Part shown: positions 26,487 to 34,436 of the stretch, in pieces
How the letters are laid out: every line of letters starts with the position of its first letter
Numbering within the stretch: the stretch's first letter is position 1
Assembly (NCBI RefSeq): GCF_002256775.1
Contig: NZ_NCII01000030.1
Location: 1-34,436 of the forward strand
Reading direction: 5' to 3'
Length of the DNA stretch: 34,436 nt
Source of the DNA: Novosphingobium sp. 17-62-19
GTDB taxonomy: Bacteria > Pseudomonadota > Alphaproteobacteria > Sphingomonadales > Sphingomonadaceae
The notes under the pieces: generated by a model
Told to the model about the DNA's origin: nothing
Databases searched by the model: none
What the model saw: only the letters and a program-made list of their open reading frames with translations
Made by a program: the position numbers and the translations under genes

Positions 26487-26511
26487 TGACCCAAGTTTCG
26501 CGTTCGGGTCA
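26487..26511. terminator. Short hairpin between convergent genes
   Basis: TGACCC (26487-26492) and GGGTCA (26506-26511) can pair across the short gap between the convergent genes ending at 26480 and 26509. There is no T-run, so a bidirectional terminator is only a weak suggestion. Confidence 0.25.
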
Positions 26512-27327
26512 TTGCGGCGTCGAGGTGACCGGCCTGACCGAGAAACTCATGAGTTCCGCCTGTTTGGCTTTTGTCGCGGGCCTCTTCGCCTCAGCCAAAA
26601 TCAGGGCTGCGGGTGCCCGGCCCTCAAGCAGAATACCCAGCACGCTGCCGACGTAGTCACGCGTCTCGCGGAATGGCGGAACCCCTTTATGCCGCCGAAC
26701 CTGCCCAGGGCCGGCATTGTAAGCTGCAAGTGCAAGGTCATAGCGTCCAAAAGCGTCGAGTTGCTGCTTCAGGTAACGCGCACCGCCCTTGAGATTCTGC
26801 AGGGCGTTCCAGGGGTTGACGACGCCCAGTGCAGTCGCTGTGCCTGGCATCAACTGGGTCAAGCCAATCGCGCCCCGGTGACTAACCGCTGCCGAATTGT
26901 AGCGGCTTTCCTGTATGATCAGCGCGTCAAGCAGCGCAACCGGCACGCCTTCTGCGCAGGCTGTCGATGCCACAATCGGGAGCAAGCGCGCGCGCCGGAT
27001 CCGGACGATCCGCGAATGCCCATTTTGCTGTGAAATGCCGGCCAGCCCACAAGCCCTGTCCGATCCCGGTGCCAATGCCGATGTCCGAAAGGGTGATGGA
27101 CTCCACAGCGCGTCCTCAACCATACCCAGCTGCCTCACCGGATTTACCGATGGCGCTGATCGCTCCGCGCTGCCCTGCGAGCGTGCCACATCGAGAAGCG
27201 CGAAAGCCTGGTCGGCCTTGGTGTGTCCGGTAAATGACTGACGGACGGCTTCGCGAGCACCGACTGGTCCAGTAGAAAAGGCAGTGACAAAACAAGCCGC
27301 GAGAACGTGAACGCAACATCTTATCAT
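26509..27327 (-). CDS. Lytic transglycosylase (SLT domain, VirB1-like)
   Basis: This 272-aa periplasmic lytic transglycosylase cleaves peptidoglycan glycan strands, in this context to let the transfer apparatus pass the wall. A signal peptide is present (CCVHVLAACFVTAFSTGPVGA, cleavage after about 24). A linker with no clear motif runs to about 110, then the SLT domain at about 115-250. The catalytic Glu is in ALIIQESRYNS (E140), followed by RGAIGLTQLMPGTA, PWNALQNLKGGARYLKQQL and the family motif LALAAYNAGPGQV. It is upstream of the transfer operon on the same strand but separated from traA by a divergent gene, so it is probably transcribed separately. Confidence 0.9.
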   Translation of the reverse strand: MIRCCVHVLAACFVTAFSTGPVGAREAVRQSFTGHTKADQAFALLDVARSQGSAERSAPSVNPVRQLGMVEDALWSPSPFRTSALAPGSDRACGLAGISQQNGHSRIVRIRRARLLPIVASTACAEGVPVALLDALIIQESRYNSAAVSHRGAIGLTQLMPGTATALGVVNPWNALQNLKGGARYLKQQLDAFGRYDLALAAYNAGPGQVRRHKGVPPFRETRDYVGSVLGILLEGRAPAALILAEAKRPATKAKQAELMSFSVRPVTSTPQ

Positions 27328-28525: not shown

Positions 28526-28594
28526 ATTTGATGATCGCCTGTGAACACCAACACAGTTTGGTGTAAGCAAAACCCTATTTCACGATCATCAAAT
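28526..28594. promoter_or_regulatory. Inverted repeats upstream of Fic gene 1
   Basis: ATTTGATGATCG (28526-28537) recurs inverted as CGATCATCAAAT (28583-28594) around a 45-bp loop. Inside the loop is a smaller dyad, ACACCAA (28545-28551) and TTGGTGT (28558-28564). The group lies 84 bp before the Fic start and may hold its operators; the Fic product has a winged-helix-like C-terminus. The role is inferred. Confidence 0.45.
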
Positions 28595-28677: not shown

Positions 28678-29793
28678 TTGCCTGTTGCCTATCACGAAGG
28701 ATGCTTTCCGCCTGCCGCGCTTGACCTTGGCGTACTGTTTCCGCTGGTCGGGCCCGCCAATGCCGCGATCGCGCGGTATGAGGGCGTCCTCGCAGGCATC
28801 CCCAATCCCGATATCCTGCTGTCACCGCTGACCGCCCGCGAAGCTGTGCTGTCCAGCAAGATCGAGGGAACGCAGGTGACGCTGGGCGAGGTTCTGGAGT
28901 TTGAAGCTCAGGGCCACCTGTTTGACGAGAGCACGCCAAAGAAGGCCGATGCGCGCGAAGTGTTGAACTACCGCGCCGCCCTGCGCGAGGCGGAAAGCCT
29001 GATGACACAACTTCCGCTATCGCAGCGGCTGATCAAAGCCACTCATCGTGTGCTGATGGATGGCGCCCGCGGCCGCCACAAGGATCCTGGCGAATACCGC
29101 CGCATCCCGAACTGGATCGGGCCAGACGGCTGTACCATTGAGCAGGCGCGCTTCGTGCCACCCGGTGCCGACCGCATCGACGGCGCAATGGCGGGCTGGG
29201 AAGCCTACATTCACGCCGATGCGCCAGACCGACTGGTGCAATTGGCCATCGTTCATGCTGAGTTTGAGTCAATCCACCCGTTTCTCGACGGTAACGGGCG
29301 CATCGGGCGGCTGATCATTCCGCTTTTCCTCTATGCCCACGGGTTGCTCTCGCGGCCGAACTTCTATCTCTCAGAATATCTCGAGGCCAATCGCAACGAA
29401 TATTACGATCGCATGCTCGCCGTCTCCCGAGACGATGACTGGAGCGGATGGGTGGCCTTCTTCCTGCGCGGCATCATCGCTCAGGCCGAAGCCAACACCC
29501 AGAAGGCGCAGGCGATCCTGTCCCTTCATCAGGACAAGCGTGACTGGGTGGTGGAAATCACCCACTCGCAATTTGCCGTTCGCGCACTCGACTGGATCTT
29601 CCAGCGCCCGATCTTCCAGACGCCGGATTTTATAGCTTCGGCCCAAATTCCACCGGCAACGGCGCGAAAGATCATCCGTGACCTACGTGATAATGGCCTG
29701 CTGCGCGAACTGGTGCCAGCTTCGGGTCGCGCACCGGCGACATTCGTTTTCTCCGAACTGCTCAACATTGCAGAGGGGCGAGAGGCCTTTTGA
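28678..29793 (+). CDS. Fic-family AMP transferase 1 (class II, with wHTH)
   Basis: This 371-aa Fic protein probably transfers AMP from ATP to a protein Ser/Thr/Tyr or acts on itself. The N-terminal inhibitory helix carries S-x-x-x-E-G (SSKIEG, S59-G64), marking a class II Fic with a built-in antitoxin. The Fic motif HPFLDGNGRIGR at 200-211 is complete, with catalytic His, Asp/Asn and both arginines. The flap region (HKDPGEYRRIPNWIG) precedes it. The C-terminal part, about 290-371 (IPPATARKIIRDLRDNGLLR), is a winged-helix domain. The start is TTG at 28678 with GGAG 7 bp upstream; an ATG further up (28654) runs into a stop. The gene looks intact. An IS110-type element follows. Confidence 0.92.
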   Translation: MPVAYHEGCFPPAALDLGVLFPLVGPANAAIARYEGVLAGIPNPDILLSPLTAREAVLSSKIEGTQVTLGEVLEFEAQGHLFDESTPKKADAREVLNYRAALREAESLMTQLPLSQRLIKATHRVLMDGARGRHKDPGEYRRIPNWIGPDGCTIEQARFVPPGADRIDGAMAGWEAYIHADAPDRLVQLAIVHAEFESIHPFLDGNGRIGRLIIPLFLYAHGLLSRPNFYLSEYLEANRNEYYDRMLAVSRDDDWSGWVAFFLRGIIAQAEANTQKAQAILSLHQDKRDWVVEITHSQFAVRALDWIFQRPIFQTPDFIASAQIPPATARKIIRDLRDNGLLRELVPASGRAPATFVFSELLNIAEGREAF

Positions 29794-29922
29794 CCACGAG
29801 CGCCTTCAACCCGGACATACGCGCTCCAGTTTGACGTGATCGATTCTTGATGGGGTGGACGCCCCCCGACGGCATCTATGTGCCAAAGTGGAGGTGTTGA
29901 AACACCACTTGAGGAGGCGTCC
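29794..29922 (+). ncRNA. IS110 leader, candidate bridge RNA region
   Basis: This is the 129 bp between the Fic stop and the transposase GTG. It has two nested paired elements: GGACGCC (29857-29863) with GGCGTCC (29916-29922), and inside it GGTGTT (29893-29898) with AACACC (29901-29906), whose stem extends to AAGT/ACTT with a bulge. IS110-group elements encode a structured bridge RNA in the non-coding end before the transposase gene. The position and folding fit, but the element's left end is not mapped and I cannot identify target and donor loops. The outer right arm overlaps the transposase ribosome binding region. Confidence 0.4.
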
Positions 29923-30594
29923 GTGTCGCAGGTTACCACAATCGGTCTGGATATCGCCAAGAACGTTTTTCACGCACATGGCGCCGACGAGCGCGGCGCC
30001 ATGGTTTTCAGCCGCAAGCTGACCAGGGCAAAGCTGCTCGATTTCTTCGCCGGCCAGCCAGCCTGTGTCGTGGCTCTCGAAGCCTGTGGCGGCGCACATC
30101 ACTGGGCGCGCGAGTTGCAGGCCATGGGCCACGAAGTTCGGCTGATCCCGCCCGCCTACGTCAAACCGTTTGTGAAGCGGAACAAGAACGATGCGATCGA
30201 TGCAGAGGCGATCTGCGAAGCGGCGCAACGACCTGGCATGCGCTTCGTGGCGGTGAAGACCGAGGAGCAGCAGGCTGCAGGATTGGTGTTTCGCACACGG
30301 GACCTCGTTGTGCGTCAGCGCACCCAGTTGATCAACGCGATCCGCGGACATCTGGCAGAGTATGGCTGGGTGGCACCGCGGGGCACGGCAAACATGACGC
30401 TGCTGGCGTCACTCATCGACGAAGAAGAGATGGCCTCGACATTGCCGGCAGCGGCGCTGCCGATGTTGCTGGCGTCACTCATCGACGAAGAAGAGATGGC
30501 CTCGACATTGCCGGCAGCGGCGCTGCCGATGTTCAAGCTCATGCTCGACTTGCTGGCCGAGTTGGACAATCGCGTCGCTACGCTCGACCGTGAA
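29923..30594 (+). pseudogene. IS110-family transposase, C-terminally truncated
   Basis: The N-terminal DEDD (RuvC-like) domain of an IS110 transposase is present. TTIGLDIAKNVFHAHG holds the first Asp, VVALEACGGAHHW the Glu, and KRNKNDAIDAEAICEA the two downstream Asp residues. The start is GTG at 29923 with GAGGAGG 5 bp upstream. The protein reads normally to ATLDRE (codon ending 30594) and then becomes unrelated sequence that is the antisense of a helicase gene. The C-terminal Tnp20 domain with its catalytic serine is therefore gone, and the element is dead. Inside is a perfect in-frame 66-bp tandem duplication at 30401-30532. Confidence 0.88.
30401..30532. repeat. Perfect 66-bp tandem duplication in IS110 transposase
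   Basis: Bases 30401-30466 and 30467-30532 are identical. The unit encodes 22 residues (LLASLIDEEEMASTLPAAAL plus PM) in frame, so the reading frame stays open. The lack of any mismatch points to a recent event. Confidence 0.95.
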
Positions 30595-31245
30595 CCGGTC
30601 TTCATCCTCTGGGGCCAGCACGGGGATGGCATCGCCGCGGAAATAGCTGCCGGTCATGGCGACGATATGCGCCTTGTCCCGTCCGATCAGCTGCGCAAGC
30701 TGAGCGCCGAGGCGGTTTCCGGCATCGGCGGAAACATGATGGAATTCGTCAATCGCGATGAGGCGGTTGTCGAACGCTTCCGGCCCCAACTCGTCAAACG
30801 CAAAACGGAATGTCGCATGGGTGCAGACCAGCACCTTTTCCTCGCTGGCGAGGAATTCGCCGACCGCTTTTACCTTGGACTTCGCCACCTTTGGATCGTC
30901 AGCACCGGGCGTGTTGCACAGGTTCCATTGCGGGGCGACAACCCAGTCGGCGAAGAATCCGTACTTGCTGAGAGGTTCGCTGCCGAAGCTCGCGCCGATG
31001 GAGCGTTCCGGTACGCAGATGATGGCCTGGCGGACACCTTGATTAGTCAGCTTGTCCAACGCCACGAACATCAACGCGCGCGACTTGCCGGAAGCTGGCG
31101 GCGATTTGATCAGCAGATACTGCTCGCCGCGCTTTTCGTACACCTGCGCCTGCATTGGCCGCATTCCCAGCTCGTCGGACTTCGTCGACACGCCGGTGTG
31201 GGCGGCCTTGAAGGACACGGCAGGGATGATCTTGTCGTCGGCCAT
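30595..31245 (-). pseudogene. SF2 DEAD/DEAH helicase, 3' end lost at IS110 junction
   Basis: This is the N-terminal part, about 218 residues, of a restriction-type superfamily 2 helicase. It starts at ATG 31245, 7 bp after the Fic 2 stop. Walker A is SPPASGKS (about 48-55), motif Ia-like IICVPERSIGASF, Walker B IAIDEFHHV (D166-E167) and motif III MTGSYFRGD. The family match ends at APEDEDRF, exactly where the IS110 sequence begins on the other strand. RecA domain 2 and the C-terminus are missing and are not found elsewhere in the window. Related helicases in other bacteria lie next to DNA methyltransferases, as here. The product, if made, cannot be an active helicase. Confidence 0.85.
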
Positions 31246-31252
31246 GCGGAAG

Positions 31253-32389
31253 CTACTTTCGGAAGAGTTCAAGATAGTCGTGGAACAGGAACAGGCGATT
31301 GCGGCGTCCTCCGGTTACTTCCACCAGCACGCCTTGCTCCACCATATCATTGATCAGCGATGCGGCAGTATTGGTCGTGGTGGAGAGCAATGCCGTCACC
31401 GCCTTCACGTCGGTGACGGGCTGGGCATAGAGGTTGCGCATCAGTTGCTGCGCATTTTCCTGTCGCCGATGGCTAAAGCGCGGGAGCACTTCGCGCTCGA
31501 TGCGTTCCTTCAGCGCAAGGATTGCGCGGAAGACGCCCGCCGATCCTCGGGCCGTTTCCTCCACCCCGTGCAGGAAGAAGACCAGCCAGTCGCGCAAGTG
31601 GTTCCCTTGACGCACGGCCATCATGTGGTCGACATAGGCGGTCTTGTTTCGCTCGAAATAGTCGGACAGGTAGAGCGCTGGCCTTACCAGCAGCTTTTCC
31701 GAGGCGAGGTAGAGCGAGATCATCAGCCGCCCCAAGCGTCCGTTGCCGTCCAGGAACGGGTGGATCGTCTCGAACTGGTAGTGCGCGATCGCGATCTTGA
31801 TCAGCGGTGGCACCATGGCTTCGGCGTTGTGCAGGAACTTTTCCAGATCGCTCATCAGTTCCGGCACATGATCGTGGTGCGGCGGCACGAACACGGCATT
31901 CTTCAGGCTTACCCCGATCCAGTTCTGGCTGATGCGAAATTCGCCTGGCCGCTTTGTTTCACCGCGTACCCCGTCGAGCAGGATGGCGTGGGTATCGCGC
32001 AGCAGTTGGTTGGACAGCGGCAAACGTTCCAGGCTGTCGATGGCGAAGGAGATGGCGCGGATGTAGTTCTGGACCTCGCTCCAGTCGTCGCGCACCTCGG
32101 GCAGCAGGTCTTCTGCATCTTTGAACGCATCTTCGATGTTGGTCTGGGTGCCCTCGATCCGGCTCGATTGCGTGGCTTCCTTGGCCACGTACATGCGGAT
32201 GAAGAATTCGATGTCGGGGATCAACTGGGCAAAGGCGTTCAACTCGCCAAGCGCGCGGTCGGCCTGGCCGAGCAGTTGCAGGACCTGCGGGTCGGATATC
32301 GTCCAGCCATGGTTGATCGGCTCCGGCAGGAAGCTGCGATACTCTAACTGGGCTTCAAACTGCCCTGCCTGATAGGCTGAAAGCTCCAT
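31253..32389 (-). CDS. Fic-family AMP transferase 2 (class II, with wHTH)
   Basis: A second 378-aa class II Fic protein. The inhibitory motif SSRIEG is at 75-80 and the complete Fic motif HPFLDGNGRLGR at 210-221. The flap (KRPGEFRISQNWIG) precedes the motif, and the winged-helix-like C-terminus (TNTAASLINDMVEQGVLVEV) ends in RNRLFLFHDYLELF. It has the same architecture as Fic 1 but only moderate similarity, so they are paralogues or independent acquisitions rather than a recent duplication. It is on the minus strand between the 251-aa gene and the helicase and reads with both. The 159 bp upstream contain two copies of a 16-bp repeat that may be its operator. The gene looks intact while its downstream neighbour is broken. 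Confidence 0.92.
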   Translation of the reverse strand: MELSAYQAGQFEAQLEYRSFLPEPINHGWTISDPQVLQLLGQADRALGELNAFAQLIPDIEFFIRMYVAKEATQSSRIEGTQTNIEDAFKDAEDLLPEVRDDWSEVQNYIRAISFAIDSLERLPLSNQLLRDTHAILLDGVRGETKRPGEFRISQNWIGVSLKNAVFVPPHHDHVPELMSDLEKFLHNAEAMVPPLIKIAIAHYQFETIHPFLDGNGRLGRLMISLYLASEKLLVRPALYLSDYFERNKTAYVDHMMAVRQGNHLRDWLVFFLHGVEETARGSAGVFRAILALKERIEREVLPRFSHRRQENAQQLMRNLYAQPVTDVKAVTALLSTTTNTAASLINDMVEQGVLVEVTGGRRNRLFLFHDYLELFRK

Positions 32390-32420
32390 ATCTCAGAAAA
32401 CGCCTCTCAATCTGCCATTG

Positions 32421-32507
32421 GGATTTCCATATGTCAGATTCGCGCTGACACAAAGGGCTTGTTTCAGTTTTCACCCTATTTTCTGATTTATGGATTTCCA
32501 TATGTCA
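32421..32507. promoter_or_regulatory. Two 16-bp direct repeats before Fic gene 2
   Basis: GGATTTCCATATGTCA occurs perfectly at 32421-32436 and 32492-32507, 71 bp apart. On the minus strand each reads TGACATATGGAAATCC; the distal copy is preceded by T to give TTGACA, the consensus -35 hexamer. A dyad TATGG-AAAT-CCATA overlaps the distal copy. The arrangement fits a promoter with two operators upstream of Fic 2, whose winged-helix domain could bind it. Confidence 0.6.
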
Positions 32508-32548
32508 AAATGGCGCGCCAGCGTTGAGAGCGCCCGAACATGACAGGA

Positions 32549-33304
32549 TCAAGCAGGCGGATGATCCTTCTCAATCGCCTTTTCGAGCCACTTCGGCAGA
32601 TCGCCAATCTGCGATGTGAACGTGTTTTCCGGAACATCCTGCCAGAATGCAACGATGGCATCGGAGAACTGGTCGAGATCATCGTCGGTCACGTTGAGGT
32701 TCGTATAGTCAGGCGGAAAACGCAGCAACGGTTCGGGGAAATCATCACGCTTCAGGAATTGCGGGGCATCCTTATGCAGCTTCTCGAACGAAATGCCCTC
32801 GCCGTGCTTATAGACGTTCACCACCAGATGGCATTGATGCAGCCGCTGAAAATATGGACGTGAACGGACCGGCCAGCCCCAGCATTCCAGGAAGTCTAAA
32901 AGCTGGTCGATGGTCGCCTTCCAAAGCGCAGCCCGCGTGTGGCTGCCATGGATAACCCGGCCCAGTTCGCGCGTGACCCAATCGCGCAGCTGCTTTTCCC
33001 ACTCATGGTACATGCCAGCGATCACGCTCAATCGCGTTGCCTTCTGCAGGTCTTCGAGTTGCAGGTAGAATGAGACGCTTTCGTCCCATGCCTGCTCATA
33101 GGCATCCGCAGGATCATCCCGGTCAGGATTGAAGTAGGGTGCCCGATTGGCCAACCAGTCATCCGCGTATCGGTCCGCATCTTCCTTCATGGTGCCGAAC
33201 TGCGACAGCAGGCGCGTTCTGGCCTCGGACACATAGAATCTGTGATTGGCGATCAAGCCGTCGCGGAACGGCCCCCACATCTGGAACAGCACCTGGTCAA
33301 CCAT
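32549..33304 (-). CDS. Unrecognised 251-aa protein in methyltransferase/Fic cluster
   Basis: I do not recognise this protein with certainty. It is mostly helical and cytoplasmic, with no signal peptide or membrane segment. A conserved-looking core is RLSVIAGMYHEWEKQLRDWV (about 89-108), followed by HLVVNVYKHGEGISFEKLHK at about 161-180. The N-V-Y-K-H stretch after a long helix is faintly like the end of HEPN domains, which is only a suggestion. The ATG at 33304 lies 6 bp after the stop of the methyltransferase reading, so the two were co-transcribed. The gene looks intact. Confidence 0.7.
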   Translation of the reverse strand: MVDQVLFQMWGPFRDGLIANHRFYVSEARTRLLSQFGTMKEDADRYADDWLANRAPYFNPDRDDPADAYEQAWDESVSFYLQLEDLQKATRLSVIAGMYHEWEKQLRDWVTRELGRVIHGSHTRAALWKATIDQLLDFLECWGWPVRSRPYFQRLHQCHLVVNVYKHGEGISFEKLHKDAPQFLKRDDFPEPLLRFPPDYTNLNVTDDDLDQFSDAIVAFWQDVPENTFTSQIGDLPKWLEKAIEKDHPPA

Positions 33305-33310
33305 TTCCGA

Positions 33311-34342
33311 TCACGCCGCCTTGGCGCTGGTCATTATGGTGTAGAGTTCGAACAGCTTTTCGAGCCGTTCGGTGTCGTTCCGAAAGCGGCGGCCGATGTA
33401 GATGCGCTCCAGCACCTCGTCGTTGCGCTCATGTGCATGGCGGAGGTTTTCGGGCATCTTGTCGGGATCATAGAGGTCAGCGATGGTCGCCGGGAAATGC
33501 GCTTAGCGGGCAAGGAGGATGTCCTCGGCGCAACGGGTGAGATCGGCCGTATTTTGCTCGGTCAGCCTGGGGACCGGGAAGGTGTTGTAGCAAACTCCCG
33601 AGGAATAACGATAATCCGACTTCATTCGTCCTGCGGTTAGTCCGACCCAGCAAATATGCAACTTCGAGCAAATCACTGCCATAGTATACAATGGCGCGTC
33701 ATATATTGCTTGCGCAGCGTCAGAAACAATGATGCCACTCTTCTGGCACCCAACCGGAAGATATTCTCGCCTCTCCGCGGAAACTCGGGGAATAATCAAT
33801 TGGCTATATGTGCCTGTAATCGTGCGCTCAAATTTGTAAGGCGTCTCGACGCCCATTTTTCCTCTATCACTACCGCTTTCTCGGTAAGCGCGCACGTTTT
33901 GCACCCGCTCGGCTATTGGGGGGAGCGCCATGGCCGCCGCCGCTTGACTGTCTTCAATCCACAGACAGTACCTCTCAATGCCATTGATGAATTCACTCGA
34001 GCCCATGATCTGTCGAAAGAACTGATCTGAACCAGGATATTCTCGGATTATGGCCTCGTATTCTGTACGATCCATCATAAAATTTCCGAGATCTCTTGGG
34101 ATGTTCCCAGCGAACATCTGAGGCAGCCCATTGATTGGCATCGGTGTTTTTTCAATAATTATGTCAGGCCCATCAACGAGATATGCATTGATGTGAGTGG
34201 CCGCCTTTCGCACGTCCTCATCATAGATAAATTTCTCCGATTTTGTCGAAGCGGAAACCCCGACAATAACGCAGATCACGTTGGCATTTTTGCTGGCATT
34301 ATTCGCCCAGTAAAAATCCTTGTGGCAGAATGATATGGGTAA
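33311..34342 (-). pseudogene. MmeI-like DNA methyltransferase, C-terminal part, interrupted
   Basis: This is the target-recognition and C-terminal region of an MmeI-type class I SAM-dependent DNA methyltransferase. Reading starts in ISFCHKDFYWANNAS (about 34342 down) and CVIVGVS, then GNIPRDLGNFMM, ERYCLWIEDS, LIIPRVSAERREYLPVG and the DYRYSSGVCYNTFPVP box. At 33503-33505 a TAA interrupts LTRCAEDILLAR; the same frame continues with 63 more residues (AHFPATIADLYDPDKMPENL to the TGA at 33311-33313). Relatives have Glu (GAA) at the stop, so a single G-to-T change explains it. Catalytic motifs (SAM-binding, NPPY) are absent: homology begins after an in-frame TAG at 34343-34345. The gene is therefore truncated at the 5' side and inactive. 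Confidence 0.82.
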
Positions 34343-34436
34343 CTACCCACCCCCTGCAACGGACGATCAGGCAGAGATGGTACCAAGTATAGTTTGGAAG
34401 GGATTGCATCCCGACAGGCGCGCGGTGTCGACGGTT
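34343..34436. other. Right edge, unrelated sequence abutting methyltransferase remnant
   Basis: The methyltransferase frame has stops here (TAG at 34343-34345 and a TGA further up) and the translation no longer resembles the family. The stretch may be the end of an insertion sequence or another fragment. I cannot identify it. Confidence 0.35.

What the first reader, a model, noticed from the sequence alone, without database searches (positions are those of the whole stretch)
28678..34342. Fic genes inside a broken methyltransferase-helicase island
On the minus strand the order MmeI-like methyltransferase, 251-aa protein, class II Fic, SF2 helicase reads like one modification/restriction-type operon with a Fic gene built in. 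A second, only moderately similar class II Fic lies across the IS110 remnant on the other strand. Both Fic genes have a complete HPFLDGNGR motif and the inhibitory S-x-x-x-E-G motif, while methyltransferase and helicase are both broken. Selective survival of the Fic genes suggests they have a role of their own, for example as a guard that responds to loss of the defence genes. The gene order is seen; the system is an inference.
Basis: partly seen in the sequence, partly recalled or inferred. Interest (0 to 1): 0.72.

Follow-up and report, generated by a model that had tools for sequence, protein, structure and literature searches.

The report
Fic cargo in broken restriction operon
The bacterium carries the wreck of a known three-gene DNA-restriction operon into which a toxin-like Fic gene had inserted, and relatives of this Fic carry repeated DNA sites that look like a self-control switch, which could place the restriction genes behind it under the Fic protein's control.

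Summary
In detail: a broken MmeI-like methyltransferase, a 251-aa gene, a class II Fic and a helicase cut to 219 of 688 residues, with a second Fic across an IS110 remnant. Relatives show the parent, a dnmA-yeeB-yeeC-type operon (nuclease-less methyltransferase, helicase, GIY-YIG nuclease), already in print. Fic and the 251-aa gene are optional cargo in a slot between methyltransferase and helicase: of 33 sampled helicase loci 12 hold cargo there and none holds Fic. Loci found through Fic show that it joined or left the slot more than once. 'Selective survival' is not supported: the helicase fragment has 16 synonymous and 0 non-synonymous changes, so it broke recently. Genomes with Fic2 and no core found argue against a simple guard. 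New here: 30 of 33 Fic2 relatives of at least 58% identity (window included) have two or more TTTCTGACATAA half-sites upstream (136 in all, 10.8 expected). In 39 loci across the wider family the repeats track the Fic C-terminal domain; Fics abutting an upstream gene lack repeats (0 of 5). Several Fics sit 1-7 nt before restriction genes. I propose a self-repressing Fic that takes helicase and nuclease under its switch. Binding is untested, and the window's own array is degenerate.

The parts
33314..34348 (-). Broken MmeI-like (DnmA-type) methyltransferase: residues 624-974 (end of MTase domain, target-recognition domain, C-terminal domain) with two in-frame stops
   Evidence: tblastn, 1 TAG and 1 TAA; PF20466 MmeI_TRD E 3.2e-73
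32549..33304 (-). 251-aa cargo gene of unknown fold, conserved N-x-x-K-H-G-x-G
   Evidence: no Pfam, PADLOC or NCBIfam model and no convincing PDB relative (best E 0.12)
32388..32511 (-). Half-site array upstream of Fic2: 32500-32511, 32480-32491 (inverted), 32429-32440 and 32388-32399 (overlaps the start codon), each 2-3 mismatches from the consensus
   Evidence: coordinates; window 4 against 0.23; 136 against 10.8 over 33 loci; 19-mer repeat, 2 against 0.00
31253..32389 (-). Fic2: class II Fic AMP-transferase of the SoFic group with a C-terminal winged-helix-like domain
30589..31245 (-). SF2 helicase (YeeB-type), first 219 of 688 residues; starts 7 nt after the Fic2 stop
29878..30588 (+). 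IS110-family remnant (transposase N-terminal domain only; right edge set by the start of helicase homology), with an exact 66-bp tandem duplication at 30401-30533
28678..29793 (+). Fic1: second class II Fic, SoFic-like, separate lineage

Best explanation
The island is a decayed copy of a dnmA-yeeB-yeeC-type restriction operon: an MmeI-like adenine methyltransferase without its own nuclease, an SF2 helicase and a GIY-YIG nuclease. Two unrelated genes, the 251-aa gene and Fic2, had inserted into a cargo slot between methyltransferase and helicase. Fic2 is a SoFic-type AMP-transferase that keeps half-sites upstream. I infer that the winged-helix C-terminus of Fic2 binds them and represses fic2. 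In intact copies Fic, helicase and nuclease follow each other closely or overlap behind that array, so the Fic probably also sets expression of the restriction genes apart from the methyltransferase, as control proteins do in other R-M systems (recalled). The AMP-transferase activity would be an abortive-infection arm, as reported for Sofic. Shown by sequence: the parts, intact relatives, the slot, the array in relatives and its covariation with the C-terminal domain. Inferred: binding, repression, read-through and toxicity. In the window only Fic2, Fic1 and p251 can still make full proteins.
For: Core: methyltransferase then helicase in all 33 placed loci of the two samples, with the GIY-YIG gene listed next in 29; Pfam domains; helicase in 23 of 398 phylum genomes and 17 of 385 class genomes; MTase and helicase motifs kept, a D-x(6-14)-[EQ]-x-K pattern in only 3 of 29 methyltransferase N-termini. 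Slot: 12 of 33 filled, with RhuM, YhcG or HTH-ImmA; AlbA2 in L010, which came from the p251 search. Array: 136 half-sites against 10.8 expected in 33 loci of at least 58% identity; clusters of three or more (2 mismatches, 130 bp) in 13 of 33 Fic loci (L058-L085, L009, L012, L182-L184; window not in this set), all just upstream of Fic, and in 0 of 35 core loci without slot Fic, 574,884 bp. In 39 loci repeat similarity follows the C-terminal domain after controlling for the Fic domain (partial r 0.208, permutation p 0.001). Three helices and a small wing at the C-terminus of the model (mean pLDDT 87); best PDB hits SoFic. Fics starting within 35 nt of an upstream gene lack inverted repeats (0 of 5, against 39 of 71). 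Precedent: CccR, a class II Fic that represses its own promoter through palindromes (PMC9755527, section 10 part 1).
Against: The window's own array is degenerate: no inverted repeat above shuffles (p 0.38), and only one half-site at 2 or fewer mismatches. The other Sphingomonad copies fail the inverted-repeat test too (L009 and L058 0.38, L012 0.54, L182 0.11, L183 0.41), so none of them, nor the window, is in the covariation test; some best repeats used there are probably not the array (L061, L100, L102, L132, by eye). The repeats also correlate with the Fic domain after controlling for the CTD (r 0.116, p 0.026). The consensus is not enriched in 53 loci under 58% identity (29 against 26.6). 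The Pfam match to the SoFic C-terminal domain is below its cut-off (20.8 against 27 bits). No sigma-70-like promoter was found. The spacing differs from the CccR site (N26 between boxes). Of 28 Fic loci (L058-L085), 23 show no real core piece within 3.5 kb or to the contig end, so restriction control cannot be the family's general role. YeeB and YeeC of B. subtilis were not compared residue by residue, and that operon showed no phage defence in the published tests (PMC9973331, passages).
Confidence: 0.7

Rival explanations
1. Guard model: the R-M proteins hold the Fic toxin inactive, and loss or inhibition of R-M releases it to stop the cell, as PrrC does with its type I system.
For: Fic/Doc and RhuM toxins were noted in R-M operons together with PrrC-like HEPN genes and proposed as layered defence (PMC3710099, passages). 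Slot Fics lie in one tight unit with the helicase. RhuM also occurs in this slot.
Against: Intact Fic2 is found where no complete methyltransferase and no GIY-YIG of this kind was found: window, G1141, G1342, G1331. 23 of 28 close relatives have no real core piece nearby. Class II Fics carry their own inhibitory motif (present in Fic2). A guard released only by a phage inhibitor is not excluded.
Confidence: 0.15
2. Passive hitch-hiking: the slot simply tolerates insertions, and Fic, p251, RhuM and others are independent passengers with no functional link to restriction.
For: Cargo is diverse and irregular. Fic and p251 occur apart from each other and apart from the core.
Against: Gaps of 1-7 nt (or a 4-nt overlap) between Fic and the following restriction gene recur in the dnmA-type loci and in four type I loci. 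Slot Fics keep half-sites (4, 4, 5, 5 and 2 in window, L009, L058, L065 and L070).
Confidence: 0.3
3. The half-site array is the binding site of another regulator, or an end sequence used for Fic mobility, not the site of Fic itself.
For: Binding was not tested. Arrays also accompany stand-alone Fics.
Against: In 39 loci the repeats track the Fic C-terminal domain; the last half-site overlaps the Fic start codon in 20 of 33 loci; CccR precedent.
Confidence: 0.15

Closest known systems
dnmA-yeeB-yeeC (YeeABC) cluster of Bacillus subtilis and relatives (PMC9973331, PMC7261158; passages read)
   Same: MmeI-like methyltransferase without REase motif, then SF2 helicase, then T5orf172/GIY-YIG protein, in that order
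   Different: The papers place helicase and nuclease directly after the methyltransferase; here a cargo slot lies between them in 12 of 33 sampled loci, with Fic in a few loci found through Fic
SoFic / Sofic (PADLOC SoFic model; PMC12249575, abstract and Results read)
   Same: Class II Fic with Fic_N, HPFLDGNGR and a C-terminal domain of three helices and strands; phage defence and toxicity reported for Sofic
   Different: 27-29% identity to SoFic structures in the fold alignment; far below the NCBIfam equivalog cut-off (184.5 against 550 bits); has upstream half-sites; an AS1-like antitoxin was not sought
CccR (PMC9755527; abstract, passages and part 1 of 2 of section 10 read)
   Same: Class II Fic with C-terminal HTH that represses its own gene through palindromes
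   Different: CccR is a secreted effector with one inverted repeat spaced by 26 bp; here there are up to six half-sites spaced about 20-30 bp, and restriction genes follow in some loci
RptR-controlled type I R-M islands (PMC12255303; abstract and outline read)
   Same: A repressor encoded at an R-M island acts on repeated sites in its promoter
   Different: RptR is a small dedicated repressor, not an AMP-transferase

Membership tests
dnmA-yeeB-yeeC type R-M cluster | MmeI-like methyltransferase lacking the N-terminal nuclease motif | tested here: met
   In relatives only: all MmeI domains in L010; a D-x(6-14)-[EQ]-x-K pattern in 3 of 29 N-termini. The window copy lacks this part.
dnmA-yeeB-yeeC type R-M cluster | Helicase then T5orf172/GIY-YIG gene downstream | tested here: met
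   In relatives: GIY-YIG listed after the helicase in 29 of 33. In the window the helicase is cut and the nuclease not found.
dnmA-yeeB-yeeC type R-M cluster | Sequence homology to B. subtilis DnmA, YeeB, YeeC | tested here: inconclusive
   Only a shared MmeI_Mtase family match in B. subtilis was seen; the B. subtilis sequences were not fetched.
Class II Fic, SoFic group | N-terminal inhibitory [ST]xxxE[GN] and HPFx[DE]GNGR motif | tested here: met
Class II Fic, SoFic group | NCBIfam equivalog cut-off for SoFic | tested here: not met
   184.5 and 166.4 bits against 550: same group, not the same equivalog
Self-repressing Fic (CccR-like) | C-terminal DNA-binding domain binds palindromes in its own promoter | tested here: inconclusive
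   Array and covariation found in relatives; window fails the inverted-repeat test; binding not testable here
PrrC-like guard of R-M | Toxin held in check by R-M subunits | not testable with these tools
   Physical control cannot be tested; Fic2 is found intact without the core in several genomes, which weighs against a strict tie
DISARM | drmA, drmB, drmC with methyltransferase | tested here: not met
   DrmMI hits to the methyltransferase only, weaker than the type IIG model; no DrmA, DrmB or DrmC in the rows shown for the operon proteins scanned

The most novel reading that the evidence does not exclude
SoFic-type AMP-transferases are autoregulated switches that head restriction transcription units. 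An operator array upstream of fic splits the operon, so methyltransferase is made first, and Fic, helicase and nuclease (or HsdS/HsdR in type I loci) only when Fic lets go. A change in Fic state during infection would then release restriction and AMPylation toxicity together.
Probability: 0.3. Interest if true: 0.75.

Novelty: new variant of a known kind. Interest (0 to 1): 0.55.

Why it matters
Restriction systems must protect the host genome before they cut, and control of dnmA-yeeB-yeeC-type systems is not described in the passages I read. A toxin-like enzyme that carries its own switch and moves into restriction operons would link two layers of phage defence in one gene and could be tested with a gel shift and a reporter. 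It also warns that a Fic gene surviving in a wrecked operon need not mean a guard.

Tried and rejected
Selective survival of Fic was tested by substitution counts. In the window it fails (helicase fragment 16 synonymous, 0 non-synonymous). In G215 the Fic branch has 19 to 1 and the p251 remnant 2 to 3 over 88 codons (Fisher p 0.016), but the intact p251 on the window branch is 4 to 3, so p251 is simply less constrained and this is weak. Pairwise omega for stand-alone Fics covers both branches and partly saturated dS (1.2-3.0).

p251 as a HEPN-like protein: the single-sequence model is poor (pLDDT 48); profile searches gave no convincing Pfam or PDB relative; a viral-contig scan gave nothing. 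Left unknown.

DISARM and BREX were considered from PADLOC hits to the methyltransferase and dropped. Fic1 was checked for its own array: the inverted-repeat test is not significant (p 0.09); a TTTGATGATC pair lies upstream, and a 72%-identical homologue has repeats downstream instead. Not explained. No Fic2 relative of 60% identity or more is among the 107 plasmid records found.

In one search loci from the genome search were read without checking their strand, so the L198 stretch printed as upstream is downstream of that Fic (seen); the rows for L199-L202 in that call are not used.
Full report
WHAT IS THERE. The window is a whole contig (C52) of a 3.8-Mb draft genome, 95% complete. On the minus strand, in order of transcription, lie a methyltransferase fragment, the 251-aa ORF, Fic2 and a helicase fragment; Fic1 lies on the plus strand beyond an IS110 remnant. 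The methyltransferase keeps residues 624-974 of a 975-aa relative, with one TAG and one TAA. The helicase keeps 219 of 688 residues and stops where the IS110 remnant begins. What it could not see is the missing third core gene, a GIY-YIG nuclease that was not found in the own genome, and the half-sites upstream of Fic2.

THE PARENT OPERON. A search of 396 genomes of the order with the 251-aa protein found it in 7, own genome included. In G080 (L009) the operon reads methyltransferase, 251-aa, Fic (95%), helicase (98%), GIY-YIG, then a small protein, an ImmA-type protease and a Beta protein. The methyltransferase N-terminus there is missing beside an element that looks IS3-like by eye. The helicase occurs in 23 of 398 genomes of the phylum and 17 of 385 of the class at E 1e-30, 37 distinct matches in all. 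I fetched 18 kb, or to the contig end, around 34 of the 37; the window itself and the matches in G468 and G585 were not fetched this way. In 33 of the 34, methyltransferase and helicase could be placed; L153 could not, because a longer opposite ORF masked its helicase. In 29 of the 33 my ORF picking also lists the GIY-YIG gene; in L039, L156, L159 and L164 it does not. Of 29 methyltransferases over 850 aa, 28 keep D-[PV]-A-C-G-S-G-N-F and 29 keep N-P-P-[FYW], but a nuclease-like D-x(6-14)-[EQ]-x-K pattern is found in only 3 N-termini; all 37 helicases over 600 aa keep Walker-type and motif VI patterns (both sets include L010, L058 and L065, the helicases also L009). This is the architecture of dnmA-yeeB-yeeC, for which the B. 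subtilis study found conserved order but no phage defence, while a Vibrio relative is cited as protective (PMC9973331, passages). [quoted passage not shown] I did not align YeeB or YeeC themselves.

A CARGO SLOT. In 12 of the 33 loci at least one ORF of 100 aa or more lies between methyltransferase and helicase. In the other 21 there is none (L047 has only an 83-aa ORF), and in 10 of those 21 the two genes overlap by 4 bases. Cargo includes RhuM, YhcG/DUF1016 and an HTH-ImmA protein, and AlbA2 in L010, which came from the 251-aa search. None of the 33 holds Fic in the slot; the only Fic match in these loci is a distant one (23-26%) about 7 kb off the slot in L047. A Sinorhizobium americanum plasmid has methyltransferase, 251-aa relative, helicase and GIY-YIG in a row. 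So Fic and the 251-aa gene are separate, optional passengers.

WHERE FIC2 LIVES. Of these, L058 (Novosphingobium piscinae) and L065 have complete methyltransferase-Fic-helicase-GIY; L070 (Hellea) has a full-length methyltransferase but a helicase cut to a 279-aa ORF; L063 and L066 have only scraps of helicase or nuclease beside an intact Fic, and the L063 contig ends 1.6 kb on. These loci were found through an intact Fic, so its intactness there is by choice of query. Type I R-M genes, named by clustering with three proteins scanned, lie near Fic in 13 of 80; L103 and L108 have a distant MmeI-like gene. In the other 60 neither was seen, but many contigs are short and other R-M types were not sought. 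In the family, 16 of 397 genomes have a Fic2 relative at E 1e-60 or better, none with an internal stop; six, own genome included, are at least 77% identical, and of those G1141, G1342 and G1331 show no core piece within 3.5 kb. On the Fic tree (48 rows) lying next to this core or its remains (8 rows) needs 5 changes, at least 4 of them forced by well-supported branches. On the helicase tree (39 rows) the five Fic rows are not one clade (AU p 1.7e-12; two rows are partial), with 3 changes, at least 2 forced. Gains and losses cannot be told apart, so Fic has joined or left this operon more than once.

SURVIVAL AND THE GUARD IDEA. Between the window and G215, whose wreck is different (251-aa gene broken, helicase reduced to 44 residues), Fic2 has omega 0.021. 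But the helicase fragment of the window has 16 synonymous and 0 non-synonymous changes on its branch, so it was probably working until recently and Fic survival there says nothing. Pairwise omega with the stand-alone G1141 Fic is 0.026-0.029, so Fic2 does seem to have a role of its own. A guard that kills after loss of the defence genes is hard to reconcile with the window genome, G1141, G1342 and G1331, where no complete methyltransferase and no GIY-YIG of this kind was found (distant MmeI-like ORFs exist in the first two; the helicase was not searched genome-wide in the last three). G215 and G080 do carry another copy of methyltransferase and GIY-YIG elsewhere. A guard released only by a phage inhibitor, like PrrC (PMC3710099, passages), is not excluded.

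THE HALF-SITE ARRAY. Upstream of Fic2 and its relatives I found repeated half-sites, consensus TTTCTGACATAA, first by eye, so the consensus was chosen after looking. With up to 3 mismatches, 33 loci of at least 58% identity have 136 against 10.8 in dinucleotide shuffles; 30 of 33 have at least two, 25 at least three, L078 has none, and in 20 one overlaps the start codon. Typical positions are -121, -101 (inverted), -80, -51, -31 (inverted) and -10. In 53 loci under 58% this consensus is not enriched (29 against 26.6), but many have inverted repeats of another sequence, such as TGCAAATATAA in Bacteroidota; a motif-free test finds p 0.05 or less in 39 of 83 loci. The window fails that test (p 0.38), as do L009, L012, L058, L182 and L183, and it passes only by half-sites (4 against 0.23) and a repeated 19-mer (2 against 0.00). 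Clusters of three half-sites at up to 2 mismatches within 130 bp are found in 13 of 33 Fic loci (here L058-L085, L009, L012 and L182-L184), all just upstream of Fic, and in 0 of 35 core loci without slot Fic, 574,884 bp. Of 76 testable loci of the scan, those whose Fic starts within 35 nt of the upstream gene have no repeat (0 of 5), the others 39 of 71. Repeat similarity among the 39 loci with p 0.05 or less follows the C-terminal domain after controlling for the Fic domain (partial r 0.208, permutation p 0.001); the reverse is weaker (0.116, p 0.026). The window is not among the 39. The Fic2 model (mean pLDDT 87) shows three helices and a small wing at the C-terminus, and the best PDB matches are SoFic entries.

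HOW IT MOST LIKELY WORKS. CccR, another class II Fic with a C-terminal HTH, represses its own gene by binding an inverted repeat (PMC9755527, section 10 part 1). By analogy Fic2 probably represses itself. In the slot the half-sites sit between the methyltransferase unit and Fic, and the helicase starts 7 nt after Fic in the window and 2-7 nt after it in L009, L058, L065 and L070, so Fic control should extend to helicase and nuclease. A similar layout appears in four type I loci: Fic followed at 3 nt by HsdR (L076), at 1 nt by HsdS and further on HsdR (L105), at 2 nt by HsdM (L109), or overlapping HsdM by 4 nt (L097). Repeats upstream are significant in L076, L097 and L109; in L105 they are by eye only (test p 0.21). 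This is inference: no binding, promoter or transcript was shown, and no sigma-70-like promoter was found. The AMPylation arm rests on the Sofic paper, where wild-type Sofic is toxic and tied to abortive infection (PMC12249575, abstract and Results).

NOVELTY. The core operon, SoFic defence, Fic or RhuM near R-M genes, and a self-repressing Fic are each in print. I did not see a Fic with an operator array heading restriction genes in the listings of ten searches of the open library, which lacks most subscription papers; I opened seven of the papers, none in full.

Noticed in passing
window 3492-25613: F-type conjugation genes (TraG, TraH, TraN, TraU, TraC, TrbI, TraL domains) and three consecutive tyrosine integrases: the wreck sits beside a conjugative element.
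   Followed up: partly
window 30401-30533: Exact 66-bp tandem duplication inside the IS110 remnant.
   Followed up: no
window 28527-28593; L209: A TTTGATGATCG / CGATCATCAAA pair lies upstream of Fic1; a 72%-identical Fic1 relative, beside a tRNA-like sequence (by eye), has copies of this motif spaced about 30 bp just downstream of the gene instead.
   Followed up: partly
L135: Two Fic2 relatives in tandem, each 52% identical to Fic2.
   Followed up: no
plasmid collection: Relatives of the 251-aa protein are on 136 plasmid records, 78 of them Citrobacter; of six regions viewed one has the methyltransferase-helicase-nuclease core around it.
   Followed up: partly
G080 and G215: A second methyltransferase/GIY-YIG pair of the same families lies elsewhere in the genomes that hold L009 and L012.
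   Followed up: no
window 26509-27327: Lytic transglycosylase (SLT) gene next to the conjugation genes.
   Followed up: no
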